Origin: Letharia columbiana
Taxonomy: Eukaryota; Ascomycota; Lecanoromycetes; Lecanorales; Parmeliaceae
Reading direction: 5' to 3'
Assembly: GCF_014066305.1 (NCBI RefSeq)
Contig: NW_023501085.1
Coordinates: forward strand, 207,501 to 271,500
DNA: 64,000 bases
Positions 10,750 through 59,241 of this stretch are shown piece by piece. Within the stretch, counting starts at the first letter, position 1; the number at the start of each line of letters is the position of its first letter. The notes under the pieces were generated by a model that saw only the letters and a list, made by a program, of their open reading frames with translations, had not been told where the DNA came from and ran no database searches. A program made the translations under genes and the position numbers.

Positions 10750-10754
10750 ATAAA

Positions 10755-17699: not shown

Positions 17700-17967
17700 T
17701 CATTTGGTATGGCCATCCACCCTCCTCTCCATTTCTTCAAGAAAGTTCATGGTCTTGGCGAATTTCCGCGAGGTCTTTTCTCCCACCACGGCTTGCTCAT
17801 GTGTCTCTGCTTTATTGAGCCAGGCGTTTAGCTGATACGTCTTTGGGCGAGTAAGGTGTGGAAGGGCATGGGTCGTCTGGCGGGAACTTTCAGTGCCGTT
17901 CCTGGAGGCGAAGGAGACTGTCAGCGAGAGTGCTTGAGCCAAAAACAACAGTGGCAACTAACGGCAT
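17700..17967 (-). CDS. Family S small protein, copy S1
   Basis: Unknown function. Exon 1 is the five nucleotides ATGCC (17967-17963). The intron is 17962-17903 (60 nt, donor GTTAGT, branch CTGAC, acceptor CCAG). Exon 2 is 17901-17700 plus the joining G at 17901, giving 68 aa. The protein begins MPNGTESS, is hydrophilic, and carries the family core W-L-N-K-A-ETHEQAVVGEKTSR. A charged helix with FLEEMERRVDG follows. No signal peptide or membrane segment is present. It is the only S copy left of the foldback element and has no zinc-finger gene beside it. The exon-1 choice is supported by the same five-nucleotide exon, phase-2 intron and MP start in other copies. Confidence 0.75.
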
Positions 17968-20488
17968 TCTCAGTTGCTTCACAGTATGGGTCTGATAACC
18001 AGTAGCGGTGTGCGGAGACGACAGGCTCCAGGCTGAGCTCTGACGTAGCTGATGGGGTCGGGAGGCGGGTGGTGCGAGGCGGCGGAGGTATTCCTCAATA
18101 CTATACAAGAGCTTCCTCTGAGTGAGTGAATGGACTTGGATCGATTTTGATGGTTGGAAAGTGGGTATGGCTTGGTGCGAAGGAGTTCCGTTCCACCCCA
18201 CCTTCGGGTACTCGGAAATTTGGTATCTCAAATTTTGCACTCAACGGTCTTCGTTTGGTTTGGGTACAATCAAGGTAGTGTTACATCAGGAATGTTGAGC
18301 GTTTGAGAGGTGGTATGATTCTAAGGGCATAATCAAGTGAGTGGGCATGAAGTTAACATAGGCTAGCAACACATTTGGACTCCGCTCGGCTACAGCTCTA
18401 TGACATGCATTATGCGTATGTCCAGTCTCCCAATCATCTCCTCGCCTGCTTCATAGCCTTCGATCCAACATACCCACAAACATCCAGAAATTCAGATGAG
18501 TGATTACGCCCACTAGACTGCGGTTGCGCTTTCTCCTAGATGTGCCAAATCGATGAGCTTCTAGCCAATTACATCCGCTCCTTCGGCTAGCCTATTGTCT
18601 CGAGATTAATGAACCTGCAGCTCATCATTTCTACTACGTTATGACGGCTGATCTTGCGACAAGCACTGTGTGCGATGTCAGACCACGAGCCTGGGAACGC
18701 CCGTCCAGACCGGGCTTAGCGTGGGGAACCTGTGCGCAGCTAAAAGAAAGCGAAAGCCGCCCTCGCCGAACTCCTTCAACTTCTTTTCCTAGATAAACTA
18801 CCACTTCGTCTTATGTTTGGCTTTCATAGAGCAACAGACCGTTGTTCTTGGTAGATGGTTGAGGTCCTAACGCGCGTGCATGAGCACGATCTCAAGATTG
18901 CGCAGCAAGCGATTCGGTGATTCGGCTCCTCCTATCTCCGACTCCGATTAACCTGCTGGACTTTCTTCTTTGAGCACACAATACTCCCAATTCTCCCTCC
19001 CGCCCCACTGTCCAGTCTTGGCAAATGCACGAATACGGATTGGTGCAAAGATGAGGCGCAGTTGTTGATGTGGCTAGAAACCTCCCCGTTGCCCCTCTCT
19101 TACAATGACGCACCCGGAGGTTGTTTGGGCCGAACCACAGTGTTGGGTTTCTAGCTGCAGGAAAACGACTCTATTGAGTATGTTGGTCGTCGAACAGTGC
19201 AATTGGACTCTTAAGCATGGCCCACCGTTCAAAGTCCAACTGCACAGTGTGACGCCCGCTGAAATGTTTGCAGTGAGGGGCTTTTTTGCGCGCAACCAAC
19301 CGCGACGGTCCAGCACTCTTAGTTTATGCAGGTCCGGGGCGAAGGATCGTCGTGCATAGGGCGTCCACCTCTGAGCCAAGGCCGGACTCTTAACACCACA
19401 CCTTAAAAATTACTAGCAGCTCGGGCCAACGGTCACCTTGCGCGAGGTACCAACACTAACACTAACGCTGATTGATCAGAGGTGCAGAATTTTGAACCAG
19501 AGAACAAAAAGGGGTCCATGGATGATGCATCCAACCTGGAAACATATCCTCTCTCTGGCTATGACTGGCCCATGGAGTCCGACGGTGACGGAGCCATTTT
19601 GATTAAAATGCTTCTGGTCCAGCCGCTTGGCCATCATTGACCAGCCTCGCACGCATAGATCTTTTGCTTTGAGACTTGATTTCTGTTTCATCCACTCCTT
19701 GACATCGCTGTCCAGACTTTTTTTAATTTCTCAGTCAAAATCAGAGATATCACTCACACCCTCAAACTGCATCCCATCGTTCAACCTAATCGAGTGGTCA
19801 CCTAATTCTTGCTGCTCTCGAAGCGACCGACTCCCAGCCAACGAACCACAATCTTCCATTATTCGATTATCTTGGCCTTGCGAAGCCATGCTGGATCGCG
19901 TAGAGAGAGATTCAAAGCACCTGACGGCTAGACAAGCTTACCGATTGGTCTTAGTGCGCTGGTTTTTGCCCTAACCAGATGGGTGGGCGCGAATCCCTTT
20001 ATCAGGCAACCAGGCAACCAGATCTAAAACTCATCCATATGCCCCACAAATTTTCCCATTCGGTATCTAATAGGACCACTCCAAGAAGGTTGGCCTGGAT
20101 TCTAGGTGTGGCCGCTTCCACGCCCTGGTGTGGTGCAAAAGGCAGGGACTCCTTGCCAACATCACAACCCTTTGCTGATAAGTTGGTATGATCTGACAGT
20201 GAGTGAGTCTGTGGGAAGATCCTCGATGTCGCAATTTTCTCATTTACGCACGTCTATAAATTGGTGACTGCACTTTAGAAGGTGAACGATTTACTCGAAA
20301 ATTCTGCAAAAAAGCACGCCTTACGTTCTATGCCGAGCAACAGTTATACCAAGGTTGCCAGGACGTGTAACAACTAAGTGTCACCAATCCGGGTGATGGG
20401 TTCGATGGTGTTTTGCATCACGAAAGAGCCAAAGCGACCAATGAAACATCTTGTTGAGACGTCTGTGCGCTGACACGCATTTTAAGCT
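17968..20488. other. No supportable gene between S1 and the foldback element
   Basis: Open frames of up to 116 codons exist on both strands without domains or consistent introns. A short imperfect inverted repeat (GTGCAATTGGACT against AGTCCAACTGCAC) lies at about 19195-19250. Composition is balanced up to the first base of the foldback terminal repeat. Confidence 0.4.
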
Positions 20489-20855
20489 TAACGTCTATAA
20501 TCGGATAACGAGAATATAGCCTTCAACGGGGTCTGGTAACCGTCCAGGCGCGGCTGGATAATGACCTACGCTAAGCCCGACCTTAAGCCCTACCCCCTAT
20601 TATTAAATATCGAAATTCGATATTTTCGCTTTATAAATAGAAGAATATTATAATAATATCTCTTATAGAGCCTTCGTAGGACTCTTATAGAGAGCTTATT
20701 ATTAAGTCTCGAAGTTAGATATCTTTATTTAAATCTAAATATAAACTCCTATAGAGATACTATTAATAATTTATAAAAATATAAAATATCGCGAATTTTT
20801 TAAGAATATTTATTATAGCGAAAAATTCGAGTTTTAAGAATAGTTATTATTATTA

Positions 20856-21423
20856 CATCTATAAATCTAAAAAGTTTCTATAAAATTTAAAATTACTAAT
20901 CGCGCGTATATCGCGAAAATTATAAAATTCGTCGAATTAGTAACTCTAATTAGAATCTATCTAAATTTCGCCGATTTAATAACTATCTTAATCTTTTTTA
21001 TTAGTTCTATTAATTTAGTAGTAATATATATAAAAAAAGAAAAGTTCTAATAATTAACGTTATGATAATAAGATTTTATAATAACGAGTATTAACGCTAA
21101 CTTAAATTTAACTACGAAATTAAACGATTTAATAAAATTAGTCGCGTAGATAATATTCTAATATAACTTAAGTTAATAAATAGAATATATAATTATAATA
21201 TATATATAGATTAATATATATAGTATATTATAATAATTTACGTAATATTTTTAAAGTTATTAAAATTTTTTAAAGTTATAGAATTAACGAAAAGAATTAG
21301 AGTAGTTATTAAATTAATAGAAAGAATTAAATATAGATAAAGTCTACTTAATAAATTAAATTATACTTATAATACGAACTCGACGAAAATCGTATAGAAA
21401 TTTACTTTTTAGATTTATAGATA
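20856..21423. mobile_element. 568-bp MITE-like insert in the left foldback arm
   Basis: The right arm lacks this segment (TTATTATTACTAAAAGAATAA is continuous there), which defines the insertion. Its ends are inverted repeats: CATCTATAAATCTAAAAAGT at the left and the complement of TATCTATAAATCTAAAAAGT at the right. A TA duplication lies at 20854-20855 and 21424-21425. TA duplication plus short terminal repeats and no visible ORF fits a Tc1/mariner-type non-autonomous element. It is RIP-saturated like its host. Confidence 0.75.
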
Positions 21424-21900
21424 TAAGAGAATAATTATTAATTTATATTAAATATATTCTCTATATATATAAATTTAATTAATAAATTTAATAAATTTAA
21501 ATTTAAAGTAATTTAATAATTATTTTAAATAATTATTTCTTAGTAAAAATTTAAGTAACTTAAAATTTTCGATTTTTTTTATTCGAAATTATCGTAGCTA
21601 TAATTTCGATAATTTCAATTAATAATTTCGATTAATAATTTTAAATAATAATTTTAAACGATAATTTCGAACGATAATTTCGAATAATAATTTTAAATAA
21701 TAATTTCGAATAATAATTTCGAACGATAATTTCGAGATAAAAAAAATTTAAATTCTCTAGAAGTAAATATTAATAGTTATTCTATATATTAGTATATATA
21801 TAAAATAAGAATTCTTTTTCTTATTAATATACTTACTTATTTTTATTTATTTATTATTTTCTTTTATTTTAATATATATAAAGATATTATAAAATTAAAT

Positions 21901-22123
21901 TTTATAATAATAAAACTATAAGTTAGTAAGTTTATTATAAGACTATAGCGTTAATAGCTATTTAATTAGCTATTTATATTAATATTCTTATTAATATCTC
22001 TATTAATATCTTAATAAGAAGTTAAGAATAGATATTTAATACGAGCTATATAGTTATCTATTTTATATCTATTAATAACTCTTTATTCGATTTTATCTCT
22101 TTTAGAGTCATATTATTTTTCTT
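21901..22123 (+). repeat. Split direct repeat A1
   Basis: Shares AAGTTAGTAAGTTTATTATA through TTTATTCGATTTTATCTC with A2 at 26219-26442. Similarity ends at TATTATTTTTCT. Confidence 0.85.
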
Positions 22124-22199
22124 CTTCTTTTCGTAGTTAAGTTTATATATATTAGTCTTTAACTATTATAAGTATACTTTATACTCTTATATACTTTAT

Positions 22200-23230
22200 A
22201 ATAACTTCCGCTACTACTATTAGATTTAAAAAAGCGACTATACGAGTTATATCCGTCTTTAAAATTACTAAAAAAATCTCTAACGCCGCTAATAAGGTCT
22301 CTAAGGCCCTTAAAGCTAAAAAGACTATTAAGACTAAAATATCTCCTCTTTACGACGAGATTATTATACTCGAAACGCTATCAAAAACTATTACTTTAAA
22401 TAAGATTAATAAAATACTCTCGCCTATTAAGAGGTTTAAAGTAGATCTTATAAAATTAATAGTCTAGCTATTTAAGATCTAAGAGAAGCGAAATTATCGT
22501 TATTATTATAAGAGTCGAGTTTATAAGTTATATCGCTATTATTACCGTTATAGTTATAGTTATTATTATCGTTACTTAAATATATCGAATTTAAACTCGT
22601 TTAACTCTAAGTCGAATTAAGAGAAAAGAAGAGAAATTCTATTTCGTTACTTAAAAGATAAGAAGTCCTTTCTTAATATTACTAAAAGGTTTCGAAGTAT
22701 AAATATTAAGTACTTTAAGTAAATCTTTTTCGAGATCTTTAAGACTAAAAACTTCGCTAAACTAGCTTATATATATATTATCTTAACTAAAGAGAATAAG
22801 AACGTTAATAGCTATAATTATATAATATACTACTTTCTTATATACTTAATAGTTATTAGTCGCTTTATTTATATAAACGTAAAAAAAGATTTAAATAAGA
22901 TTCTTTATACGTATACTATTCGTCTACTATAATTACCTCTTATCTATAAATTTAATTTTATTCTTACTTATTATCTCGTTTTTATTATTATATATATTTA
23001 GAATAGCTAAGATAATTTTAAAATCTAAGAAAGCGAATAATTAGAGCTATAAAAATCTTCTTATATTTAGAGAAACTTATATAAGTAATAGTAAGTTAAA
23101 TATCGATACGTCTAGCCTTAATAAGCCCGTTATAACTAAAGAATCTAGAATTTATAAAAGTTTTAATAGAGGTAACTATTTTCGCGAGCGCTGCTCTTAC
23201 TTATATATCTATTTAATCTATTAATAAAAT
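22200..23230 (+). pseudogene. Gag-like remnant of the tyrosine-recombinase retroelement
   Basis: The first part (about 22210-22480) reads as lysine-rich protein (KITKKISNAANKVSKALKA, then TKISPLYDEIIILETL). Near 23150-23226 a degraded zinc-knuckle-like motif follows: RIYKSFNRGNYFRERCSYLYIY, where several tyrosines stand at positions that are cysteine or histidine in a C-x3-FN-x-G-x-C-x4-C-x3-H-x-C pattern. C-to-Y changes are what RIP produces from TGC/TGT codons. Many stops are present and no function remains. Confidence 0.55.
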
Positions 23231-23839
23231 TACTTATTAGATAAGTATTTTAAAATCTATAACTTAGCGATAAGTATTTTTAATTAATTACTATTAAATA
23301 ATCGTATTATTATATTAAAATAACTTTTAGAGTATTTATAGATATTATAGTCGCTATAATATATATCTAAGAGATTCTTATACGTACTATATAATCTATT
23401 AAACTCGAATTTACTCTATTAAGAATTATTAATAGTTAATAATTAGTTTAAATAATTAAACAATTACTCGAATCTAATATTTACTAAGATTATTTCGACT
23501 ATTTTTTAGAAGAGCGCTAAGATAGATTTTTAAGACTTTATTCTAGCTTATCGTAATTAAAATTATTTATTAATACGTTAAGTATCTTAAATACTATTAG
23601 CGAACCTTTAAAAATAGCTTTAGTAATATCGTCTAATCGAGGTTAACTCTTAAAACGAGCTCTATTACATCTATTTACTACTCGAATTAATATTAAAATA
23701 TAATAAAGATTAAAGACGAATTTATAACCTCTTATTTCTATACGATTACTTAGTTAATAATAGTATTTAAACGAAGTAAGACGTATTAAAATATATTATA
23801 TACGATAATATAGTAGTAATATTATTATAGAAAGATCTA

Positions 23840-24950
23840 AAAGCTTAATTCGTTAAAAGAGATCTTAAAGACGCTTTTAGATATATATTTATCGCTATAT
23901 TAAATTAATAACTACTTAGTTTCAACTACGATAAATACTATTAAAAAGAATAATATCTATTATTCGAACTACGTATATTATTATTTCTATTTAATCTCTT
24001 CGTAAAGGCCTTTACTTAAATCTTAATCGTTATTCTTCTATAAAAAGTAGTACTTTACTATTTAAACGATTTCTTTATAATTCTTTTATTAAGTAATAAC
24101 GTAGCTATATATACGTAGTAGTTTAACTAGCTATATAGCGAATTAAACCTTCGAATTAATTATATAAAGAATATAATAGATTTTATAGTCGAGTTTCTAG
24201 AAATCGAATTCGATAGTATTTATATATAGGCGAGACTTCTCTTAGATAAGCTAGTTAAAGTAAGAACTACGGTTAAAAATCTTCTAAAAAGAGTAATTAT
24301 CTTATATTAGAAGCTCGAGTTAGTAATTAACTTTCTCTTTTTCGCTATTAAAGTTATAATTTTAAAAAGAGTATTCTTAAGATAACTTTTTAATATTCTT
24401 CGAAGGTCTACGATAATTATATAGATTATAGACGATATAAGAGTAGACTTACTATAATAGAATATCTTTTTAAAATATTAAAATAGCGTCGCCTTAATAT
24501 ATTACATCGATAGTCGAGTTATATAGTATATATAAATCGATATATCTAGAAAATTCGATATAGAAGATTATATTCTTAACTATCTCGACTATATCTAATT
24601 AATTTAACTTAAAGACGTTTTTAATATTAAAATAGCTATATATTACCGTTTTAAAGATATATAATTTAAAGAAATAAAGGTTATTTATTACGCGATAAAA
24701 CTATAACTATATTAATTACGAGAATCTCGCTTAATTCTCTACTATAATAACGACGTATATATTAATAAATTATATAAATTCTTTATATATAAGTTAGTTA
24801 TAGCCTTATTACGCGATATAGCTATACTAATAATTACTTATAATATTATAATAATATTTATTTAAATATCTACGAAGACTAACTAGCTAGCTAATAATCT
24901 ATTATATTTTCGATATTAAAAAATCGCTAATATATATCTATAACTGAAAG
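23840..24950 (+). pseudogene. Reverse transcriptase/RNase H remnant (DIRS type)
   Basis: One frame from 23870 reads DAFRYIFIAILN, then LLSFNYDKYYL, ELRILLFLFNLFVKAF, and the catalytic site YYLND at 24056-24070 (YLDD with D-to-N by G-to-A). Downstream, LELVINFLFFAIKVIILKRVF and LRQLF match the DIRS-type pattern ELQSLIG-x-LNFA-x-KVV-x2-GR-x-FLRRL. RNase H-like sequence follows. RIP stops are scattered throughout. Confidence 0.75.
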
Positions 24951-25189
24951 GTCTTATATCTCCGCTAAAATAGGGCGAGATCTATTAGAATATTAATATA
25001 ATTAGATCGTATTATCTCGAGAGATCGTATAACTTCTCTAATAGAGACTTACTATTAAAATTAGAAAGACATATATAACTCTAATAAGATTCTATACGAT
25101 TTATTACGTACTTATAAAAATCTAACCTCTCTTTCTAGTAATTATAAATGCTCTTATAAGCTGGATTATTAACCTAAGTACTCGCCGCG

Positions 25190-25960
25190 TTAAATCGAAG
25201 TCTATAAAGATATATTTTATCGATTTTAGATTAGCTTATATAGATATAAAATTTAATAATCTCTTAATATTTTATTACTCTTAGTTATAACGTATTATTA
25301 TAGATAGTTAATATCTTTATAGCGAAGCTAATATAAAAAAAAGACGTTTAATTATTAAGAATCTATTACTTTAAATCCTTTCTTATTTCGATAAATTAAT
25401 TTATACCGAGACGACTCTATATATCTTCTTTTATCTCGTCTTCGCGATATTTCTACGCGTAGATAAGTTTATTTATAATAAGCGAGATCTTTTATAAAAG
25501 AACTTCGACGAATAGTTTTTTATATATTACTCGATAAGGCTATTCGATAATTACTTAAAACTTATACTTTTAGCGTTTAAAATAAATCTATTTCGCTATA
25601 GAATTATACTTACGATAGTTATATTAAGCGATAACGTATACGTAGTTAAAGTCTTACGTTATCTCTTTAGATAAGAGACTTTATCTAATATATCGCTATT
25701 CTAGCTAAAAAGCTTCTTTTTTACTAAAAACGTTATTATTAATAATCTTCGCGAGATACTAATATTACTTAATATTAAGAATTATTATTTAAACTATTTC
25801 TTTTATAGAGAGACTATAATATTAATATATAACGCCGATCTTAGTAATAACGAGATCTAATTATTAGATCGTTAAAAGTTAAATTTCTATCGTCTATATA
25901 TTATTATTTATCTAGTTTATATACTTAGAGTATTACTACGATACTAGTATCTTTTAGCTT
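25190..25960 (+). pseudogene. Tyrosine recombinase remnant
   Basis: In one frame: ETTLYIFFYLVFAIFLRVDKF, with the first catalytic arginine codon at 25456-25458, then YNKRDLL, RLFDNYLKLIL, VLRYLF and NVIINNLREILILL. The final block aligns with EIQLLGRWKS-x2-YRLYI, where the nucleophilic tyrosine codon is kept at 25888-25890. The histidine of the H-x2-R box appears as tyrosine (CAT to TAT). This layout is that of DIRS/Crypton-type recombinases. The gene is inactive. Confidence 0.75.
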
Positions 25961-26051
25961 ATCTACGCTAATACTATTAATTTCTATTACTTACTATAAT
26001 AGATATCGTTAAAAGTTCTTCTTAAAACCTTCACTCTCTTAGACGACGTCT

Positions 26052-26217
26052 TAGATTTAAGAGTTTTTCTAGCGCTGAAAAGTCTTTTTCGAGTTATCTA
26101 CTTAGTCTAGATATCTAAAAAGCTCTTAGCTATCTTAATATTAGATATATTTAATTATATATCTATATATCTACTTATATATATATTATTTCTATATAAT
26201 CTTATTATTTACGAGTA
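26052..26217 (+). repeat. Split direct repeat B1
   Basis: AAGAGTTTTTCTAGCGCT through CTTATTATTTACGAG is repeated at 26494-26660. It directly abuts A2. Confidence 0.85.
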
Positions 26218-26218
26218 T

Positions 26219-26442
26219 AAATTATAATAGTAAAATTATAAGTTAGTAGATTTATTATAAGACTATAGCGTTAATAGCTATTTAATTAGTCGTTTATATT
26301 AATATTCTTATTAATATCTCTATTAATACCTCGATAAGAGATTAAGAATAGATATTTAATACGAGCTATATAGTTATCTATTTTATATCTATTAACGACT
26401 CTTTATTCGATTTCGTCTCTTTTAAAGCTATATTATTTTTCT
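26219..26442 (+). repeat. Split direct repeat A2
   Basis: Second copy of A1, beginning right after B1. About 50 bp of single-copy sequence separate it from B2. Confidence 0.85.
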
Positions 26443-26493
26443 CTCACTTATCTATATTTATATATAGTCTTATTTTACTTTAAAGTATATCGC

Positions 26494-26660
26494 TTAAATA
26501 TAAGAGTTTTTCTAGCGCTAAGAAGTCTTTTTTAGACTATCTACTTAGTTTAGATATTTAAAAAGCTCTTAGCTATTCTAGTATTAAATATATCTAATTA
26601 TATATCTATATATTTACTTATATATACGTTATTTCTATATAATCTTACTATTTACGAGCA
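26494..26660 (+). repeat. Split direct repeat B2
   Basis: Second copy of B1. It ends with TTTACGAG at the element's right border, where foldback-arm sequence resumes. Confidence 0.85.
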
Positions 26661-26879
26661 CTAATACTTTTTTATTTTTATTTTATATTTTAAAGCTTTT
26701 TTTCTTTATTATATAAAATACTATAATCTATTATATAAAATATTCTATTTTTTAAAAATATCTATAATTTATAGATATTATAAATATTATTTTTTTAAAT
26801 AAATTTAATAACTTAGTAATTTATTATATTTTTATTATATATAATATTTTTATAATAAATTTATAAATAATTCGAAAAA

Positions 26880-27560
26880 TTCGAGATTTTTCTATAAAAA
26901 CTCGAAATTTTCGAAATTTATAAATATTTTAAAATCTTTATTATAACTTTATAATTATCTTAAACTTTTCGAAATAATTCTATTAATAATTTAAATTTTT
27001 TAAAAATATTAAGACTTTAAGAGATAATTCGAAATTTTCGCGATAATTCTATAGTTAACTTAAAATAATTTAAAAAATACTATTATTAATTTAAAATTTC
27101 GAAAATTTCGAGACTTTAATAGATAATTCGAAAATTTCGCGATAATTCTATTATCTATAATTAACTTAGAATAATTTTAAAAATACTATTATTAATTAAA
27201 AAAAATCGAAAATTTTAAAACTTTAAAAGATAATTCGAAATTTTCGCGATAATTCTATAATTAACTTAAAATATTTTCAAAAACATTATTATTAATTTAA
27301 AAATTTCGAAAATTTTAAGACTTTAAAAGATAATTCGAAATTTTCGCGATAATTCTATAATTAACTTAAAATAATTTTAAAAATTTTGAAAATTTCGAGA
27401 CTCTAAAAGATAATTCGAAATTTTCGCGATAAATCTATTATTATTAACTCGAAATTTTCGAGACTTTAAAAGATAATTCGAAATTTTCGCGATAATTCTA
27501 TAATTAACTTAAAATAATCTTAAAAATACTTCGAAATTTTCGAGATCTTTATAAAGTATT
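26880..27560 (+). repeat. Tandem ~60-105 bp repeats in the left foldback arm
   Basis: At least six units centred on GATAATTCGAAATTTTCGCG, then ATAATTCTATAATTAACTTA, at irregular spacing. The mirror array lies in the right arm at 28200-28990. Confidence 0.85.
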
Positions 27561-27735
27561 ATTAAATATTTAATATTTAATATTTATAAGTTATTTAAAT
27601 CTTATATAAAAATTTCGTAATTATAATATAAACGCGAATATTATTCTATTTCGAAGTGGCTAACTCAGCGAATATTCTCTATTTCGCGTCTAAATAATTA
27701 TCAACTTACGGGAATAATTAGACTTCGAGAATCTT

Positions 27736-28077
27736 AATATACTAACATTAGCGTATAGAGATAATTGATTAAATTTAATAGGGCTATTACTAGTATTCTT
27801 TATAATAAAGCTATTACTAGTTATCTTTCTTCGTTATTTTAATTTATAAACTATATATAATATAGTAAAATAATAATATATTTATCTATATAGTAGTTTT
27901 TAAATAGACTTATATAGTAGTTAATTAAGTTAATTAAGCTTCTTAAAGAATAAATCGCTTTATATAGAGAACGTCGCCCGAATATAACTATATTTAAACT
28001 TTATTATTTTATAGAAAGACTCTTACTAATAAATCTATGCTATATACGATTAGACTACTAAATTTTATATATACTTA
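27736..28077. other. Loop of the foldback element
   Basis: About 340 bp of AT-rich sequence between the two arms, without self-complementarity, open frame or motif that I recognise. Confidence 0.6.
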
Positions 28078-30057
28078 CTAAGATTCTCGAAGTCTAGTTA
28101 TTCCCGTAAGTTAATAATCGTCTAGACGCGAGATAAGAAATATTCGCTAAGTTAGTTACTTCGAAGTAGAATAATATTTATACTTATATTATAATTACGA
28201 AATTTTCGCGTAAAATTTAAATAACTTATAAATATTAAATATTAAATATTTAATAATAATAATTTATAAAGATCTCGAAAATTTCGAAGTATTTTTAAGA
28301 TTATTTTAAGTTAATTATAGAACTATCGCGAAAATTTCGAATTATCTTTTAAAGTCTCGAAAATTTCGAGTTAATAATAATAGAATTATCGCGAAAATTT
28401 TAAATTATCTTTTAGAGTCTCGAAATTTTCGAAATTTTTAATTTAATAATAGTATTTTTAAAATTATTTTAAATTAATTATAGAATTATCGCGAAAATTT
28501 CGAATTATCTTTTAGAGTCTCGAAAATTTCGAGTTAATAATAATAGAATTATTACGAAAATTTCGAATTATCTTTTAAAGTCTCGAAATTTTCGAAATTT
28601 TTAATTTAATAATAGTATTTTTTAAAATTATTTTAAATTTATTATAGAATTATCGCGAAAATTTCGAATTATCTCTTAGAGTCTCGAAAATTTCGAATTA
28701 ATAATAATAGAATTATCGCGAAAATTTCGAATTATCTTTTAGAGTCTCGAAATTTTCGAAATTTTTAAATTAATAATAGTAGTTTTTAAATTATTTTAAA
28801 TTTATTATAGAATTATCGCGAAAATTTCGAATTATCTCTTAGAGTCTTAAAATTTTCGAAAATTTTAAATTAATAATAGAATTATTACGAGAATTTCGAA
28901 TTAATAATAATAGAATTATTTCGAAAATTTTAAGATAATTATAGAGTTATAACGAAGACTTTAAAATATTTATAAATCTCGAAAATTTCGAGTTTTTATA
29001 GAAGAATCTCGAATTTTTCGAATTATTTATAAATTTATTATAAAAAAAATTATATATAATAAAAATATAATAAATTACTAAGTTACTAAATTTATTTAAA
29101 AAAATAACGTTTATAATATTTATAAATTATAGATATTTTTAAAAATAGAATATTTTATATAATAGATTATAGTATTTTATATAATAAAGAAAAAAGCTTT
29201 AAAATATAAAATAAAAATAAAATAGTAGATTTAATTTTATAATATCTTTATATATACTAAAATAAAAGAAAATAATAAATAAATAAAAATAAGTAAGTAT
29301 ATTAATAAAGAAAAGAATTCTTATTTTATATATATATTAATATATAGAATAGTTATTAATTAATACTTCTAGAGAATTTAAAAAAAAATTTATCTCGAAA
29401 TTATCGTTTAAAATTATCATTCGAAATTATCGTTCGAAATTATCGTTTAAAATTATCATTTAAAATTATCGTTTAAAATTATCGTTTAAAATTATTATTC
29501 GAAATTATCGAAATTATATAGCTATAATAATTTCGAATAAAAAATCGAAAATTTTAAGTCGCTTAAATTTTTATTAAGAGTAATCGTTTAAAATAATTAC
29601 TAGATTACTTTAAATTTAAGTTTATTATATTTATTAGCTAAATTTATATATATAAAGAATATATTTAATATAAATTAATAATTATTCTTTTAGTAATAAT
29701 AATTATTCTTAAAACTCGAATTTTTCGTTATAATAAATATTCTCGAAAAATTTATAGCGCTTTACGTTTTTATAAATTATTAATAATATCTTTATAAAAG
29801 TTTATATTTAGATTTAAATAAAGATATTTAACTTTAAAACTCGATAATAAGCTCTCTATAATAGCTCTATAAAGGTTTTACGAAGAATACTATTATAATA
29901 TTCTTCTATTTATAAAGCGAAAATATTGAATTTCGATATTTAATAATAGGGGGTAGGGCTTAAGGTCGGGCTTAGCGTAGGTCACCATCCAGCCGCGCCT
30001 GGACGGTTACCAGACCCCGTTAAAGGCCACATTCTCGTTATCCGATCATGGACGTTA
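28078..30057 (-). repeat. Right arm of the foldback element (uninterrupted)
   Basis: Reverse complement of the left arm over about 1.98 kb, with mainly transition differences. It ends at GACGTTA (30051-30057), directly followed by GC-balanced sequence. Confidence 0.85.
28200..28990 (-). repeat. Mirror tandem repeats in the right foldback arm
   Basis: Complementary units (CGCGAAAATTTCGAATTATC) in opposite order to 26880-27560. The two arms differ slightly in unit number, suggesting array change after duplication or independently of the other arm. Confidence 0.85.
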
Positions 30058-30989
30058 CCGAACATGTGCAAGGATCGCCGCATTGATTAGCAAATACATA
30101 TTCTTTCATACCAAATATATTCTGCTAATGTGTCCCAGATAGGGAATTTTGCTCCGTAATCTAGAACTAATAAACTCCCTTACGGGCGTTAAGTAACAAT
30201 AGTCCTACAGTCATGCACGCCCAACACCAACGATGGATCCGAGACACATAAGCTAAATTCTCCCCAAGATTTCGAAACAGCTACCAGGCTCAGTACACCA
30301 ACCTTTTACCGGATTGAGATCTTCCACCGCTATGTTTAACGGAGATGTCTATATGCACTATTAGTCGCCCAAATTTTGGAATGATGTCGCCGATGTTGTC
30401 GGTAATATCTGGCACAGTCTGTCAGACGCCTGAGCTTGTATCTATAAGTTGCTTTACATTCCCCTCCTTTGAGCATCAATCTCTCTCTGTCATTGACTCT
30501 TCGCAAGCCTAGTGGGATCTCGATTGTTCATGAGTGGAGAAACCGCCCTTTCCCCTCAGATACCGCCGCCCCTTGTGCGCCGTTCCTTAGCGCCCTAAGT
30601 TCCTGCCAACCGCTCATGTGTGACCTCTAAATACAGTGGTAATACTCTCGGAGTTTCGCTGTCGGGCTCGAAGCGCTGCTTCAACGAGCCACCTGTGAGT
30701 CCGAATCCTGCATGAGGTGAGCAATCTGTTTCACATCTTGCCCTCAACTCTGGTGTCACGGTTCTATCCCTCCCACAACACTATGCGACCCAATTAGGCC
30801 TAGCGTGGCTTGACCCCACGAGATGAACAGCTCCACCCCGTAAATAGATCTCTTCATAGCTGATGTTCTATTCTCCTTACGAGTACACTGTTTCAACAAC
30901 TGTTTAGGCCGAATTCGTTCCAGTCTCTGACATCTGACAGTACAGAATCTGTAGGCAGACAACCCCTCGGCCACCACAGCTGCCAGTCA
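30058..30989. other. No supportable gene upstream of Z1
   Basis: Balanced composition. Plus-strand sequence in the Z1 frame is open back to a TGA near 30851 but has no ATG, so it may be 5' UTR or hold an extra exon. No promoter motif can be assigned. Confidence 0.4.
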
Positions 30990-32108
30990 ATGGATTTCAG
31001 TTATGCAGATGGGCCGCGAAGCTCCGAACCAGGCGAAAACAATTACGAATATACGATTGATACTCCTGATGACGAGTGGTGGGGCTCTATGCTTAGTATA
31101 GGTCACTCTGATGCTACCGGACACCAAGAGTTACCAGAGCCTACAACAGCGTCACTCGGTTCCACGTCTCAATCATCCCAGAGCAGAGGCTATTTTTCCT
31201 CTTTGCAACCCTCAAGCAGTCCTTATTTCGCTGGAGCTCAGTCTAGCTATCCAGCCATCCAGCTCCCAGCTAATTCTCTGGCCACGTTCGACGCTCCATT
31301 CACACTTCACCCAGGTGGGACGAGCGAGATGTTTGTAACCTCTACACTCGGTGACGCATCTTCTTCAAATTCATTTGAAGCGGTTGGTACGGCATCAGCT
31401 GGCCACGAATCAGGGTTGGACAATACCGCGCCATCAGATGAATTCTGCGATGTCAGCCGTGGCCTAGACCAACAGTCATTGGCTCTATCAGGGGCAGTCA
31501 ACACCACCAGATACGAAGCGCATCATAAAGACCTCCGGTCCAATTTTGACAGCACCTTACAAAGTCACAAAAATCAAGAGGCAAGTGACGCGCTTGCTGA
31601 CAGCCACGCCGGATACGTAACTAAAGATAATCCGGCCACACCTTACTCTTACTTCTTTGAGGAGGGTGGGCGTGAACAAAGACAGAACGGCATTCAAATG
31701 GATGAGTATGAGGCGGTGGTGGAGTCAGGCATATATCCAGCTCCGCGGCACGGTAATGAACCCGGGGCTCGTTTAGCCAGCGACCGAACCTGTCCCGGCA
31801 GGTTGTCGCCAGGGGACTCATCGCGAGCCTTCCTGCTTACCACGTCTTCGACCTCAGCCACTCAAACCCATCCCACTAACGACAGCTGGAAGTGTGATGA
31901 TTGTGGTAGGGTGCTCGCAACGAAAGGCACCAAGAACCGCAACAGGAATAAGAGGCGTCACCATTGCCCTGGTACTGGCCCGAAAAATCCCTGCCCAATA
32001 TGCCCTAAGTCGTTCAATCGCAGTGATACTCGACTGCTACATTTGAGGAAATGGCACCCGGAAATCCATATGGAACCGCCACGGCCACGGAAAAGAAAGG
32101 ACCTATGA
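30990..32108 (+). CDS. Family Z C2H2 zinc-finger protein, copy Z1
   Basis: One uninterrupted frame of 372 aa starting MDFSYADGPRSS. Residues 1-290 are low-complexity Ser/Thr/Pro/Gln/acidic sequence without a fold, as in many fungal transcription regulators. The C-terminus has an irregular zinc module at about 301-327 (CDDC, then a K/N/R-rich loop ending HHC). A canonical finger C-x2-C-x12-H-x4-H follows at about 335-356 (CPICPKSFNRSD...LRKWH), with a basic tail PRPRKRKDL. The likely role is nuclear DNA binding; targets are unknown. It is the most diverged of the four Z copies and the only one modelled without an intron. A doubtful S-like trace lies about 580 bp downstream. Confidence 0.75.
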   Translation: MDFSYADGPRSSEPGENNYEYTIDTPDDEWWGSMLSIGHSDATGHQELPEPTTASLGSTSQSSQSRGYFSSLQPSSSPYFAGAQSSYPAIQLPANSLATFDAPFTLHPGGTSEMFVTSTLGDASSSNSFEAVGTASAGHESGLDNTAPSDEFCDVSRGLDQQSLALSGAVNTTRYEAHHKDLRSNFDSTLQSHKNQEASDALADSHAGYVTKDNPATPYSYFFEEGGREQRQNGIQMDEYEAVVESGIYPAPRHGNEPGARLASDRTCPGRLSPGDSSRAFLLTTSSTSATQTHPTNDSWKCDDCGRVLATKGTKNRNRNKRRHHCPGTGPKNPCPICPKSFNRSDTRLLHLRKWHPEIHMEPPRPRKRKDL

Positions 32109-34215: not shown

Positions 34216-34309
34216 CGGTACTGGGGTTGGAAGATGGATAGTATGATGAAGCTTGCTTGATAGCTGTCTCTCTGTCTTGGTTTGGGAAAGAGAGAAAGAG
34301 TGTAGCGTG

Positions 34310-35540: not shown

Positions 35541-35541
35541 A

Positions 35542-38626: not shown

Positions 38627-38898
38627 ATGACGTGCGAGTCCTGTATAGTTTTCTAAGGATTACGCTCACTGACCGATACTCTTTTTCGTCCAGGACTCCT
38701 CCTAAATCCGAAGAGAAATCCAACCGCCCCAACTCACCGAGACCGCAACTCGAAAGTTGGAGGGAGGATCTGCAGAGCCATGAACAGGTCGCCATCGGAC
38801 AAGAGAGGGAAAGATCGGAGGCGAAGATGAAGGCGTTTCTCGATGACATTGAAAAGAAGATAGACGGACCAAAGGATATGAGAGGGCAGGAGACGTGA
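38627..38898 (+). CDS. Family S small protein, copy S2
   Basis: Unknown function. Exon 1 is ATGAC (38627-38631), the intron is 38632-38693 (62 nt, donor GTGCGA, branch CTGAC, acceptor CCAG) and exon 2 is 38694-38898, giving 69 aa. The protein begins MTTPPKSEEKS. The core is W-R-E-D-L-QSHEQVAIGQERE, so the usual ETHEQ is QSHEQ and the KTSR box is lost. The C-terminal helix FLDDIEKKIDG is conserved. The exon-intron design is identical to S1, S3, S4 and S5 although the donor and the second codon differ. It is a hydrophilic protein with no signal peptide. Confidence 0.7.
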
Positions 38899-41654: not shown

Positions 41655-43288
41655 ATGACGTCCTCGTCCGCGATGCGTGGAAGTTACTACCACGCATCAG
41701 CGTATACAACGACCTGCATGTAGGCTCTTGAAAGGTTCTTGTGTGACGGCCACTGCTAATACTGTAACAGCGAACTGCCTCAGTACTACTCAGGCAACCA
41801 TCTATCTATTCACCATCCTAACTCATCGCATCGAGACTCATCATACCCTCTATCGGCTGCGGTTTTTTCACCTTCGCTCTCTGAGAGCAGCTACACTGGT
41901 CATCCGGTCACGAAGGGATATGAGATCGAATACAATACCGATGTACAAAGCAAGTCATGTTGTTCCTCGGAGGCTCAGAGTCGTCGAGGTGGGGATGGTA
42001 TGCCATACAATGACTCCACTATCAAGGGCGGGACACAGAATAACTACACCGCTGAGATTAGGCAGAACCTCGCTATGCCAGGGTACAACAGTCCCGCAAA
42101 TGTGCCCGGCCATTTCCGTCCTCTCTCTGCGAAATTTGCTACCCCATGGTACACTCCGTATCTTGACGCGTCTTTCGAAGAGTGCCAACCGACGGACTTT
42201 TCCTCGAACGGTTACTCAAGTATTGGAAGTCAGTTTGAGCTTGATGACAGCCAAATTCTTGAGGGGAATTTTTTCATGGACCCCATGTTCTCTCAGAATC
42301 TATCAAGCGAAGACCACTACTGCCCAAATAGCATCGCAGCTAGCCAGACAGTTTTCGAAAACCACCTTCTACCTCTCATCCCGAGCCTGCCTATCAACAG
42401 ACCTGTGCCTCCTGTAGACTTGATTGCAAGAACTCACATGAGCGGTCCATGCCGCGATGTCTCCATACCTATCATACACCCGGGTCGGGCCGTCCTGCCG
42501 TTTGAATCAACCACACGGCTAGACCCTGCGACGAAATACTCTTCAGCAGGCCTTACTACCCCTTGGACCATCTCACCAAGTGTCGCATTCGCGGAGACAA
42601 CTCACCTCCATCAGCCATCGGCTTTCAATAATCCATGCTACAACGCCTCACTAAGAGCCGCGGGCTCTCACACGCCGCCACATATTTTCGCCGCATCAAT
42701 AGGCTATCCTTGGAATGTTAAATCTGCAGATTCCATCGCCATGACAGAAGCGTCCGCTGATCCTGACTTCGAATTACGTTGTCTTGGCCAAGTGTCCTTC
42801 TCCCAGCCTCGCGTTCAGGGAAGTTCTCAAGACCAATCGGCCACAAGTAATCACCTACCAGGCGCGCGGCAAATCTCTGGACGCCACGCCCTCCAAGAAA
42901 CGCTGTGCAAACCGTTCGGTGTCAGTCACCAGGCCCGAGTTGGAACACAGCCTTTCGAAGTGTTCATATGAGGGATGCTCCACAATCAGAAAAGGAAAGT
43001 ACCACGCATCGAACATGCGAAACCATGTGCGTGATACGCATGAGCAGCCCCACACGGCCCGTATGTGAAATCTGCGGAAAAAAAGATTTGAAAAAAACTG
43101 AATCCCTGAGGAGACACGTGAAAAAAATTGCACCCCGAATTTTATTTCCCAGTAGGCGTAAAGAAAGTGTGGAGGACGGGGTTGGACGGAACGCCGTATT
43201 CTACATATCAGCAGGTCCACGACTATATCAAAATGAGGAAAATGGAGAAAGCTTGAATTGTGTATGCTCTACGCAAGGACGACGATGA
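41655..43288 (+). pseudogene. Family Z C2H2 zinc-finger gene, copy Z2, probably frameshifted
   Basis: Exon 1 is 41655-41719 (MTSSSAMRGS...). The intron is 41720-41770 (GTAGGC, branch CTAAT, ACAG), and exon 2 runs from 41771 in frame through the long Ser/Pro-rich body. A change of frame before the fingers is closed by a possible 70-nt phase-0 intron at 42792-42861. Finger 1 is CSYEGCSTIRKGKYHASNMR, then N-H-x4-H (C-x4-C-x15-H-x4-H). It is followed by a stop at 43068. Finger 2 (CEICGKKDLKKTESLRRH) is in the next frame, one base out, and lacks its last histidine. It is thus either a decaying gene or one ending after finger 1. The body is about 400 residues. S6 lies about 1.06 kb downstream on the same strand. 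Confidence 0.65.
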
Positions 43289-44347: not shown

Positions 44348-44668
44348 ATGTCGTCGAGCCAGCAATCCTATCGCGTTTCCAAGCAGCCTTTGGCGACCAA
44401 TGTCCGGGAAAATCCGAAACGTCATCTCAAGTTGGATCTAAAGACGCTCCAAGCCCTTGAGAGAAGTCAGAAATCGAGGTCGTCCACTGATTACTATGTC
44501 TCGAATCCAGAGAGCTACGAAAGGCTCGCTGCGACAGGAAGCTCTGGTCGTACGCCGCAACAGGCGGAGATGGAGGCGAAGCATTACCAGCGTGGTGTGA
44601 ATGAAGCCGACAAGAAGCTCGGATCGAGAAATGGAGGAGGGAGAGAGGAGTCTAAACGGAAGGCTTAG
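44348..44668 (+). CDS. Divergent family S protein, copy S6 (intronless)
   Basis: A single frame of 106 aa starting MSSSQQSYRVSK, preceded by an A/C-rich leader ending ACCAAC, a good fungal start context. Residues about 56-77 (DYYVSNPESYERLAATGSSGR) align with S5 (DDWYRTPQTHEQLAVNGSSAR): aromatic pair, P, E/Q-S/T-x-E, LA, GSS, R. The invariant His becomes Tyr. The C-terminus is a charged helix ending KRKA, but without FLEE. It is longer than the other copies (68-75 aa), has no five-nucleotide exon, and lies downstream of Z2 on the same strand. The coding call is good; family membership is likely but inferred from one alignment. Confidence 0.65.
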   Translation: MSSSQQSYRVSKQPLATNVRENPKRHLKLDLKTLQALERSQKSRSSTDYYVSNPESYERLAATGSSGRTPQQAEMEAKHYQRGVNEADKKLGSRNGGGREESKRKA

Positions 44669-47070: not shown

Positions 47071-47335
47071 ATGCCGTTCGTCATCGCAACATTTCTTTCT
47101 ACCGAAATAGACTGACGAATGATATTTGGCCAGGAATAGCACAGAGCATCCTCAACAACCCTCCTATACCGCTGCACGCTCCGCAAAGCCCGAGAAACCC
47201 CAGCTGCAGTCCTGGCTCAATAAGACAGAGACGCATGAGCAACTGATGGTTGGACAAAAGACATCTCGATCCTTCGTGACGACGATGCGATTCCTCGAGG
47301 AGATGGAGACGAAGATCGACAGGGAGTTCAGATGA
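47071..47335 (+). CDS. Family S small protein, copy S3
   Basis: Unknown function. Exon 1 is ATGCC (47071-47075), the intron is 47076-47133 (58 nt, donor GTTCGT, branch CTGAC, acceptor CCAG) and exon 2 is 47134-47335, giving 68 aa. It begins MPNSTEHPQQPS, nearly the same as S1 (MPNGTESS). The core is W-L-N-K-T-ETHEQLMVGQKTSR and the end is FLEEMETKIDREFR. S1, S3 and S4 form the closest trio. The A-run and C/A-rich sequence just before the ATG suit a 5' leader. No neighbouring Z gene was found. Confidence 0.8.
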
Positions 47336-50753: not shown

Positions 50754-51043
50754 ATGCCGTTTGTCCCCACAAAATCCCATCTAGTCCTACATCTTGACTG
50801 ACTGCTCATGTTCTTCATAGGGAAAGCAACGAACCTCCTCGGCAGACGACCAAAGCCTCTCCGGCCAATACGGAGCCTAAGGGGTCCCAGCTAGATGAGT
50901 GGTATAAGACGCAAGAGACACACGAGCAGCTGGTAGTAGGAGAAAAGACGTCGCGAACTTTTGCCAAGACTCTGGGCTTTCTGGAAGAGATCGAGGAGAA
51001 GGTGGATGGTGATGACAGAGGAGAAGAGAACACAAGAGGCTGA
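50754..51043 (+). CDS. Family S small protein, copy S4
   Basis: Unknown function. Exon 1 is ATGCC (50754-50758), the intron is 50759-50820 (62 nt, donor GTTTGT, branch CTGAC, acceptor ATAG) and exon 2 is 50821-51043, giving 75 aa. It begins MPESNEPPRQTT. The core is W-Y-K-T-Q-ETHEQLVVGEKTSR, followed by a helix FLEEIEEKVDG and an acidic tail GEENTRG. It is the last plus-strand copy: S and Z genes to the right are all on the minus strand. The longer open frame ending at 50801 in this region is the leader plus read-through into the intron, not the product. Confidence 0.8.
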
Positions 51044-52504: not shown

Positions 52505-52751
52505 TTACCACTCTGATCTAAAGTACGCCCGGAAAGTTATTCCCTGGACCGCCAGCTGCTCAAATGTCTCCGGCTGTCGATACCACTGCTCCACTGCAGA
52601 GTGCCTCCCCAAGGTCACTTCGTGAAAGTACATCGGCCACTAGGCGATAGGGCTATTGCTGGTTGGGATCGTAGAGGTATCTAGAGAAGATAGTGATAAT
52701 AAGCAGGGGTAAGTGTTGGGAAAGAGGGGAGGTGGGAAAGACATGCGGCAT
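52505..52751 (-). pseudogene. Family S relic S7, downstream of Z3
   Basis: The former exon 1, ATGCC (52751-52747), is followed by GCATGT where the donor should be, and by a CTCTAG acceptor at 52681 (66 nt, family size). The spliced frame meets a stop after nine codons. In another frame the core survives: AVEQWYRQPETFEQLAVQG, ending in TGG-TAA at 52505. It is therefore an S gene broken by a donor change and a frameshift. It lies 695 bp downstream of Z3 on the same strand. Confidence 0.65.
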
Positions 52752-53445: not shown

Positions 53446-54846
53446 TTACTTCGTCCGTACCTTGAGCGATGCGGCCAGCGGCTGACCTGAGTGTTGACGT
53501 AAGATATGCCTTATCAAATTGTCTGGACGACCTGATTGGATGACCAAGTGGCATTCTGGACATGTGGGTTTTGTTTTGTTACCATGGCGATTACGCTTGT
53601 GTCGTCGTAGCGAGTCCTTTTTCGAGCCCCCGTGGAATTTTGCTCCACACCCTCTAAACGTGCACGTTGCGACGCCAGCAGTTGATGTATCAGCAGAGAC
53701 TGATGGGGAAGGAGCTGGGGCGGGAGGGTTGATGGTAAAAGTAGGTGGCAAGGTCGTGGTTGGAAGGGGTGGATTGTCCAACAGGATTCTAGGTGCCATG
53801 TTTGGTGAAGATTTTAGGTCGCTGCCGGGCGGGAGGAAAGAGTACTCGACTCCTGGGGTTCGTTGAACCGAGGTATCTGCAAGGTACATTGTACCATTGA
53901 TCACGATCATGACTCCTGATTGGCCACTGGATGGAAGTCGAAAAATTTGTGGTACTGGACCTCCAGTTGTTGACAGCGGTGAAAATGAAGAAGCTGCCAT
54001 TCCTGTTCCTCCATCAGCGCCAGACGCCGCGTTCAAAAACAGAGCACATTCGTCAGACTGAGACTCGGTACCGAAAGGTGTTGCGGCGTCGGCATTGGCG
54101 AAGACTTCTTGTAGGTTTTGTGGTAGTAGGCGTGTTACCGTGGAGTTAATGCCACTTCCACGGCGCATGCCCATCGTTGGCTCCTCTTGAGCCCAGATAC
54201 CGGTTCGTGGATCATTGTAGCTTTGCATAGATGCAGCATTGTCATCAGGCGTTGGCCGCAAATCGTAATCTTCTACACAAGGTGTTGAAGTATCGATCCC
54301 CCCTGCGCTCTCGGAGTACTGGCTGTAAGTGGTAGCGGAGGACTTGTGGGGAGTCCAGATGGGAGGCTGTAGATTGGTAGAGCTTCCTTCAGACCAATGA
54401 CCTGGTTGCCTCCAAGATGAGGAGGACTCGGCGGCGTTGGAAGTCTGGGAAGCAGTATGAATGGTCTGCGCTCGATCTGTGCTCTTGTCAGAAAGCTTGA
54501 ATTTGGAGAAAAAGAGTGGGTGGACACTCACAAATGCGATTATTGGTAAATCCAGGGCTCAACGTAGAACTGATCGTCTCAGGTACACATTGTGACGAAT
54601 TAGCATCCATGCCGATGGTGTTGGTTCTTCCAGAGGTGCTATCAGAGATGTCGCTGTTGGACAAGCCTTCATTGCCACTGAGGTTGAGACTTTCCAATGA
54701 TTCACCGAAGTCTTCTGTCTCCCAGTGTCCGTTGAAATTAGGTCCGTGATTGGGGAAAGTTCACGAGGATAGGCCTCTGGACCTGGAGGCAACAGGGGAG
54801 CATTGTGTACTGGAGATAAATGGGTGCTGCGTTCGTTGAACGTCAT
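53446..54846 (-). CDS. Family Z C2H2 zinc-finger protein, copy Z3
   Basis: Three exons: 54846-54765, 54714-54532 and 54476-53446, with introns of 50 nt (GTGAAC...ACAG) and 55 nt (GTGAGT, branch CTGAC, ACAG). The frame closes exactly to 431 aa starting MTFNERSTHLSP. The body is Ser/Thr/Pro-rich. Two C-terminal fingers follow: C-x4-C-x15-H-x4-H (CTFRGCGAKFHGGSKKDSLR...) and C-x2-C-x14-H-x4-H (CPECHLVIQSGRPDNLIRH...). All zinc ligands are intact, so this is a good candidate for a functional DNA-binding regulator. The first intron donor is weaker, and an additional 5' exon (ATGAGTCC near 54985) is possible. S7 lies downstream. Confidence 0.75.
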
Positions 54847-57119: not shown

Positions 57120-57351
57120 GGGCGTCATTTGTGGGAGGTGAAAAGGGTAGGGCTACGCTAAGACCGCGCCAACGCCCGGCTTCTCAGGTTGCAACCAATT
57201 TTTTTGTGTCTGCGTCACCAATCATATCCTATATCCCAAGGAGCACCATTCAATATACTCGTTGGGCTTGTCGGCGTCATTTGTGGAGAGGTGAAAAGCC
57301 TTGACCGCCAACCCATAGGGCTACGCTAAGACCGCGCCAACGACGCCGGCG
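57120..57351. repeat. Two direct copies of an ~60 bp repeat
   Basis: GGCGTCATTTGTGG through GGGCTACGCTAAGACCGCGCC occurs at about 57121-57172 and 57273-57345, the second with 20 extra bases. Both are followed by similar GGTTGCAA/GCTTGCAA and ATATCC/ATATCTCAAGG phrases. CTACGCTAAG is also found in the foldback terminal repeat (GACCTACGCTAAGCCCGACC), hinting at a shared transposon family. Confidence 0.65.
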
Positions 57352-57639
57352 TCTCTCCTTGATACTTAGGCTTGCAACTCCCTTCGATTTGTTCTTCGCG
57401 GAGACTAGCCTAGTCTCTATATCTCAAGGCTCTTGAAGTGCAAAAGGCACGTCAACAAGATCAAGACTCCCTACGATCAGCCTTTGACCACTACTGTGAG
57501 CGCGAAAGAAATGAGAAGTAATTTACTATCTTGCATACTCGAAGTGGCGTACATTTTGACATCCGACTGCTCAGATTCGGCATTCTTCGCATGTGTCATA
57601 CGGCATCGTCACAAATCCAATGCCCTAAAATGCAGAGCG

Positions 57640-57760
57640 AAACCGTTAGGTCGGTCCCATACTCATAGGGCCTCGCTGGCCTCATCGTTCCCCATCCAAG
57701 CGCCACCTGCTCGTGTGTCTCCGCCGTGTTCCCACACTACCAACAAGTCAATGGATGATC
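57640..57760 (-). pseudogene. Family S relic S9
   Basis: The minus strand reads TAETHEQVALG in one frame, matching the core W-x4-ETHEQ-x3-G. A tryptophan and an in-frame TAG lie a few codons upstream (LTCW-stop-CGN). No exon 1 was found. Clear motif, dead frame. Confidence 0.4.
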
Positions 57761-58955
57761 TTTTACGACCGATTTCCAGAGCAGAGCGCGATATAATAAA
57801 ACGCCGTCTGGGTCTCTCAGCCGCTGTTGAAATGTTCTTGCGCCTTTTCCCTCCTATTGTCAGCAACTCAGTTTATCGGTGACCGGAGAATGCTACATCC
57901 AGATACAGCAGGGGTTCTTGTGTGGAGTGACAATGACTAAAAACTACAAGTTCTTCTGTGCTTCTTTGCTACCCTCACAAGAAGTCTTGTCGTATCGGTC
58001 CATCCACATCTCGACCTTGGCCCGAGCTTCCATGCCGTCAACCAATCCTGCGATTGCACGGGGTCCCACATAATCCACGGTAGCACCAAGCGTCCCAAGC
58101 TCCTTAGAATTCATCATCCCGGGTAGCGCAGAAACACGACCCTTCATCGCGGCAGGTCCCTGCATTAGGCGCGAAACCCTTCGTCAAGCCTTTCATGCAG
58201 CCTTGAGCTTTTCGAACCCACGTCATTCCGCCCACTAGTGAAGTCCTTTCGAGGACCCCAGACCCCTTGTCATGCCCCGAATAGCGCAACCGGGCCTCCC
58301 AAATTTGCCGAACTCCGAAAGCCGGCCAACCATATCACGAGGCTGGAGGCAGACAGACCAAAAGACACGGAATTCAGAGCCTCGACAAAGAAATCGGCAG
58401 CATGGAGCTGATACCCTAGAGGTTTCAAGGATGGTAGCCAGAAGGATTCAGCGTGCTTATCCAACCCTCCCACTTTATATTTAAGCCTGCAGGACATCCA
58501 CGCGACAGCCACGTGCACCGTTTGCCACCCCCTCTTCCGCCCTTTCCCCCGTGAATGGTCCGTGCAAGAGGCCAAGGTTGATTTTGGCTTCTGTGGACCG
58601 TGACGTGGAACCCGGTTTTCGCTAGGAGCGAGGGGCGAGTGACGCGCAGTTCTCTGTATCTGTTTCTGATTGGGTGGCATGGATTGATGATCCTTATTGG
58701 CAAGCCAGGCCGGCACCAAACAACAGATGCAGAGCCCATAGCAATCAACGGAGTCTCGAACGACGCATTGAAGTTAACATCATCAAACTGAGCGGGCAGA
58801 TTCCAAGTCAGATCAAGCAAACGTGCATTGACAGGGTAATCCTCTATCTGCGCAAACCGCCTCCCAGCCGTGAGGCTTTATCGTCTATCTCCCAATCATC
58901 ATTCATCCCAACCCTTGCAATCCCTCCCACGACGCCCCCATGCCCATACCCACCA
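57761..58955. other. No supportable gene
   Basis: Open frames of up to 149 codons on both strands without domains. The minus frame 58719-58270 reads partly as low-complexity basic sequence. Confidence 0.4.
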
Positions 58956-59241
58956 TCACCTCCTCCTCCTCTCCTCCGCCCTGCGCCACTCCATCTCCCG
59001 CTCCCGTTCCCACGTGCGATCCGACCTTGCCGAGCTCCCATTCACCGCCAACTGCTCATGCGTCTGCGGTGTCCTGTACCAATCATCTAGCGCTGAATGC
59101 TTTTGCCCTCCATAGCGCGCGAGGGTATCGGCGGATAGCTTGGGTAGCTTCTCGGGTTCTTTGCCCAGCCACCTGTTTTGGGGTAATGTACGTTAGCTGA
59201 ATCCATGAAAGAGGAAACGGGATAAGAGAGACGAACGGCAT
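58956..59241 (-). CDS. Family S small protein, copy S5
   Basis: Unknown function. Exon 1 is ATGCC (59241-59237), the intron is 59236-59173 (64 nt, donor GTTCGT, branch CTAAC, acceptor ACAG) and exon 2 is 59172-58956, giving 73 aa. It begins MPWLGKEPEKLPKLSADT. The core is D-W-Y-R-T-P-QTHEQLAVNGSSAR, followed by a highly basic and acidic helix (WEREREMEWRRAEERRRR) in place of FLEE. It diverges from S1, S3 and S4 but keeps the exon design. It lies 643 bp downstream of Z4 on the same strand. Both-strand openness in the C/T-rich 3' part means the last ~20 codons are less certain. Confidence 0.75.

What the first reader, a model, noticed from the sequence alone, without database searches (positions are those of the whole stretch)
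17700..59241. Undescribed small-protein family S with a five-nucleotide first coding exon
Five copies (S1 17.7, S2 38.6, S3 47.1, S4 50.8, S5 59.0 kb) can each be modelled with a first exon of only ATGCC or ATGAC and a phase-2 intron of 58-64 nt with a CTRAC branch. Each second exon encodes the core W-x4-[EQ][TS]HEQ-x3-[GN] and a charged C-terminal helix. A divergent intronless copy (S6) and three relics (S7-S9) are in the same 42 kb. Repetition of the same intron phase, size and position in diverged copies on both strands argues that the tiny exon is real. I recognise no known domain.
Basis: partly seen in the sequence, partly recalled or inferred. Interest (0 to 1): 0.9.

Follow-up and report, generated by a model that had tools for sequence, protein, structure and literature searches.

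The report
Small spliced genes beside zinc-finger genes
A lichen fungus carries an undescribed family of small-protein genes whose coding sequence is split by an intron only five bases after its start, and some of them sit just behind zinc-finger genes in a repeated arrangement; the genes look real but what they do is not known.

Summary
The window is from Letharia columbiana, a lichen fungus. S1-S5 have the stated models: 5-nt first coding part, phase-2 intron of 58-64 nt, 68-75 aa. An unbiased model search gave only 5-nt first coding exons in all five and in S10, S12 and a C5 copy outside the window; the control gave 1 of 194 other ORFs. dN/dS is below 1 in 22 of 23 unsaturated pairs. Named homologues come only from Letharia, Imshaugia and Alectoria. 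No Pfam or NCBIfam match reached a cut-off. S7 and S8 are relics; S9 was not confirmed and S6 is doubtful.

The C49 copy was found through its zinc-finger gene. Seven other copies show no such neighbour. I infer an old two-gene module with S as helical partner of the zinc-finger protein; this is untested. The tiny coding exon is real, but start-proximal introns are a known kind.

The parts
17963..17967 (-). S1 exon 1, coding part ATGCC
   Evidence: only spliced model found
17902..17962 (-). S1 intron, 61 nt, GTTAGT...CTGAC...CAG, phase 2
17700..17901 (-). S1 exon 2, core WLNKAETHEQ (protein 68 aa; contained in public record HO173_009599)
38627..38631 (+). S2 exon 1, coding part ATGAC
38632..38693 (+). 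S2 intron, 62 nt, GTGCGA...CTGAC...CAG, phase 2
38694..38898 (+). S2 exon 2, core WREDLQSHEQ (protein 69 aa)
47071..47075 (+). S3 exon 1, coding part ATGCC
47076..47133 (+). S3 intron, 58 nt, GTTCGT...CTGAC...CAG, phase 2 (a second acceptor 6 nt further is possible)
47134..47335 (+). S3 exon 2, core WLNKTETHEQ (protein 68 aa)
50754..50758 (+). S4 exon 1, coding part ATGCC
50759..50820 (+). S4 intron, 62 nt, GTTTGT...CTGAC...TAG, phase 2
50821..51043 (+). S4 exon 2, core WYKTQETHEQ (protein 75 aa; public record HO173_009605 holds it with another N-terminus)
59237..59241 (-). S5 exon 1, coding part ATGCC
59173..59236 (-). S5 intron, 64 nt, GTTCGT...CTAAC...CAG, phase 2
58956..59172 (-). S5 exon 2, core WYRTPQTHEQ (protein 73 aa)
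44348..44668 (+). S6, intronless ORF of 106 aa, doubtful distant member
   Evidence: independent profile E=0.81; similar proteins P0011, P0018, P0025
52508..52751 (-). S7 relic: ATGCC followed by GCATGT at 52751, core with broken frame
   Evidence: (E=1.3e-4)
57599..57736 (-). S8 relic, short core fragment
   Evidence: E=0.02; E=0.0024
59884..61362 (-). [not shown]
53446..54558 (-). [not shown]
41760..43041 (+). [not shown]
30864..32108 (+). [not shown]

Best explanation
S is a genuine family of small (about 70 aa), probably intracellular helical proteins, seen here only in lichen fungi and unnamed metagenome records. Each typical gene's coding sequence is interrupted five nucleotides after the start by a short phase-2 intron inherited from the family's ancestor. 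The family arose as the downstream member of a two-gene unit, C2H2 zinc-finger gene then S gene on the same strand 0.64-0.94 kb apart. Some units duplicated as pairs, and the contig C50 locus then expanded, with S genes multiplying beyond their zinc-finger partners. Most likely mechanism (inferred): S binds the neighbouring zinc-finger protein through its conserved W-x4-[EQ][TS]HEQ-x3-G helix and adjusts its activity as a small co-regulator. Shown: gene models, conservation, selection, repeated linkage. Inferred: pair duplication, physical partnership and regulation.
Confidence: 0.4

Rival explanations
1. S genes are real, but their place behind zinc-finger genes is a by-product of segmental duplication in an unstable gene neighbourhood. 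S acts alone, for example as a small stress or developmental protein.
For: Seven C50 copies (S1-S4, S10-S12) have no zinc-finger gene close upstream; S copies outnumber zinc-finger neighbours; the locus is broken up by AT-rich blocks.
Against: The pairing recurs at two unlinked loci, C5 and C49, with the same order, strand and similar spacing.
Confidence: 0.35
2. S and its neighbour form an antagonistic or self-recognition pair (allorecognition or selfish type) that diversifies by duplication and decay.
For: Diverged clustered copies plus relics, restricted occurrence and a paired layout.
Against: No HET, NLR or toxin-like domain was matched in the proteins scanned; dN/dS shows constraint rather than diversification; the S4 second exon is identical in L. 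columbiana and L. lupina.
Confidence: 0.1
3. The intron is a regulatory switch: its donor is weak on purpose, and retention yields a truncated or N-terminally extended product.
For: The donor is GTTNGT (6), GTCCGT (1) or GTGCGA (1) in the 8 copies, never GTANGT. Retention gives out-of-frame peptides of 4-25 residues in S1-S4 and S10, of 52 and 80 residues in S5 and C5, and an extended in-frame protein in S12.
Against: No expression data. The genome's own donor usage was not measured. Some relatives suggest GTATG donors (P0049, P0051, P0053, read from protein letters only).
Confidence: 0.12
4. The ORFs are chance open frames or pseudogene debris.
For: Small size, no known domain, two relics.
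Against: Homologues in several lichen fungi, shared splice sites, dN/dS below 1 in 22 of 23 pairs.
Confidence: 0.03

Closest known systems
Unnamed hypothetical proteins HO173_009605, HO173_009599 (Letharia columbiana), HO133_003794, 003796, 003797 (L. lupina), IMSHALPRED_011139, 011141 (Imshaugia aleurites), ALECFALPRED_006080 (Alectoria fallacina)
   Same: These are the same family; HO173_009605 and HO173_009599 contain S4 and S1, and L. lupina 003794, 003796, 003797 correspond to S5, S4, S3, the order seen in the window.
   Different: No name, domain or function is given; some automated models extend the N-terminus upstream. None of the six locus tags searched occurs in the paper library (HO133_003794 and IMSHALPRED_011141 were not searched).
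Start-codon introns of short proteins (Nielsen and Wernersson 2006, PMC1626468)
   Same: Intron at the very start of the coding sequence, in short proteins; the class includes fungi (abstract and passages).
   Different: That class is phase 0 between codons 1 and 2; here it is phase 2 after 5 nt.
C2H2 zinc-finger proteins with a C-terminal finger pair (the neighbours)
   Same: Genomic companions of S5, S7, C5 and C49.
   Different: S has no fingers, and the S profile found no such gene among the open frames scanned.
Functional microexon of Trichoderma virens Xlr2 (PMC11121469)
   Same: Very short fungal exon (start of abstract in the search listing only).
   Different: That one is included or left out of an mRNA by condition; the S exon 1 holds the start codon and must hold 5' UTR.

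Membership tests
Start-codon intron class (PMC1626468) | Intron between codons 1 and 2, phase 0 | tested here: not met
   Intron lies after nucleotide 5, phase 2, in S1-S5; resembles the class, is not a member
Start-codon intron class (PMC1626468) | Short protein without signal peptide | tested here: inconclusive
   68-75 aa; polar N-terminus by eye, no signal-peptide program was run
Any Pfam-A or NCBIfam family | Score above curated cut-off | tested here: not met
   S2-S6, the C5 copy and five relatives: no match above cut-off (Pfam; NCBIfam on S2, S4-S6 and two relatives); S1 not scanned
[not shown]
   [not shown]
[not shown]
   [not shown]
Transposable or repeat element | Similarity extending into flanks between copies | tested here: not met
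   blastn of 2-kb segments of 8 copies: 5 of 28 pairs match, all within exon 2
Family S | W-x4-[EQ][TS]HEQ-x3-[GN] core | tested here: met
   S1-S5; S6 has YYVSNPESYERL and does not fit
Family S | 5-nt first coding exon | tested here: met
   8 of 10 intact copies on C50 and C5; not S6 or S11; SC49 also lacks it

The most novel reading that the evidence does not exclude
Lichen-forming fungi carry an undescribed two-gene regulatory unit: a C2H2 DNA-binding protein plus a dedicated small helical partner from the next gene, switched by a conserved weak intron five nucleotides into the partner's coding sequence. The units were duplicated as pairs and expanded in Parmeliaceae.
Probability: 0.2. Interest if true: 0.65.

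Novelty: new variant of a known kind. Interest (0 to 1): 0.45.

Why it matters
It gives a firm gene model for a family that automated annotation handles inconsistently, and a testable hypothesis (zinc finger plus small partner) for a group of fungi with few functionally understood lineage-specific genes (general knowledge). The repeated non-consensus donor five nucleotides after the start is a natural system for asking whether start-proximal introns regulate expression.

Tried and rejected
Known domain: no Pfam or NCBIfam match above cut-off for the S proteins scanned (S1 not scanned); PDB sequence search gave nothing and one chance-level hit, E=5.2. Viral collection: 16 pattern stretches, no relative. 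Mobile-repeat origin: rejected, flanks do not align. Structure comparison was not run because both models are low in confidence. Transcript evidence: I had none to examine. The second protein search scored 7992 candidates, probably swamped by low-complexity words, and returned 10 proteins; the third used trimmed rows. One search, a first control, wrongly included the S loci and is replaced. One search used a wrongly joined contig for its three C50 entries, which are discarded; redone. My note miscounts the dN/dS pairs; the right count is 36 pairs, 13 saturated, 22 of the other 23 below 1. Upstream-extended starts in public models (P0002, P0003): no in-frame ATG before the first upstream stop at any of 8 copies, though a further upstream intron was not excluded.

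Full report
What was checked. The window lies in contig C50 (427,474 bp) of a 52.2 Mb genome in 161 contigs. A protein containing S4 with 100% identity is a Letharia columbiana record on a contig of the same length (HO173_009605), so the host is L. columbiana, a lichen-forming fungus. The S genes lie in stretches of about 50% GC separated by AT-rich blocks (17-26% GC).

Gene models. To avoid fitting to that claim, I enumerated for each copy every ATG within 420 nt upstream, every GTNNG[TCA] donor and every YAG acceptor with an intron of 45-130 nt and a CTRAY branch, keeping open frames only. All models found in S1-S5, S10, S12 and the C5 copy have a first coding exon of exactly 5 nt; S3 and S10 have a second possible acceptor each. 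S6 and S11 gave none. For S12 the one listed model has a 111-nt intron; I think a 60-nt intron with a CTTAC branch, which the scan's branch pattern excludes, is likelier, and it uses the same ATGCC. Outside the S loci, 194 ORFs of at least 60 codons without an early ATG gave any spliced model in 12 and a 5-nt one in 1; 4000 random anchors gave 294 and 1. The copies are homologous, so this shows that the structure is shared, not that it arose eight times. The start context has a purine at -3 in 7 of 8 (S10 has C).

Other species. The three protein searches returned 67 distinct proteins. Those with names come from Letharia, Imshaugia and Alectoria; the rest carry no name. The searches need shared short words, and the second went badly, so absence from other fungi is not proven. 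Of 9 NCBI-named records one (P0025) is S6-type; of the other 8, five begin MP directly on the exon-2 sequence, two contain that junction internally and one does not use it (read by eye). These are gene predictions, and I do not know whether transcripts supported them. Several metagenome proteins read through the intron and keep M-P-x-V (P0022, P0023, P0034, P0040, P0041, P0046) or M-T-F-V (P0035), which is compatible with ATGCC or ATGAC followed by GTNNGT; protein letters cannot prove the third base.

Selection. Among 36 pairs of nine second exons, 13 have saturated dS, 22 of the remaining 23 have dN/dS below 1, and one (S5-C5) is 1.25. The two pairs with dS below 1 give 0.39 (S1-S4) and 0.37 (S11-S12). 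Nearly all other dS values are 1 or more, so these are rough.

Extent of the family. A search of the own genome with S4 found nine matches: S1-S5, three beyond the window on C50 and one on C5. S10 starts ATGCT, S12 ATGCC and C5 ATGCC. A profile that held none of them supports relics S7 and S8 but not the 45.5 kb stretch, and S6 only weakly.

Structure and function. The models of S4 and S2 (44 and 33 sequences in the alignments) have mean pLDDT 64 and 65 and pTM 0.30 and 0.31: a loose N-terminus, a short helix at the W, and a longer C-terminal helix. This suits a binding peptide more than an enzyme, but it is weak evidence. The partner hypothesis rests on linkage.

Comparison with what is known. 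Introns directly after the start codon are described across eukaryotes including fungi and occur in short proteins (PMC1626468, abstract and passages). The S intron is like these but phase 2 after 5 nt. The exon itself must be longer because of 5' UTR, so it is not a spliceosomal microexon. None of six locus tags of the family occurs in the held paper library, and keyword searches (listings only, 8 of 142 and 8 of 50 papers listed) showed no paper on such a pair in the rows listed.

Verdict. The genes and the tiny first coding exon are real with high confidence (my estimate about 0.9). The zinc-finger to S unit as an old module is likely (about 0.65, slightly lowered after rechecking). The partner function is a hypothesis (about 0.35).

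Noticed in passing
window introns of S1-S5; L011 (S10, S12); L015 (C5): All eight S introns have a base other than A at donor position 3 (six GTT, one GTC, one GTG). Whether this differs from the genome's usual donors was not measured.
   Followed up: partly
window 1-12000 and 20000-30000; C50 about 283.5-293.5 kb: Large AT-rich blocks split the gene neighbourhood, as expected of repeat-induced mutation of transposons (recalled, not tested).
   Followed up: no
L013-L014 (C50:294120-296779 and 301819-303174), L029 (C15), L015 (C5): Large C2H2 proteins with a conserved middle region and a C-terminal finger pair, related between C5, C15 and C50; no Pfam match for the middle region at C5.
   Followed up: partly
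L032 (C49) upstream of 3539, minus strand: Tandem repeat of a GGACTGCC(GA)-like unit just upstream of the C49 S copy, near a TATA-like sequence (by eye).
   Followed up: no
[not shown]
   Followed up: no
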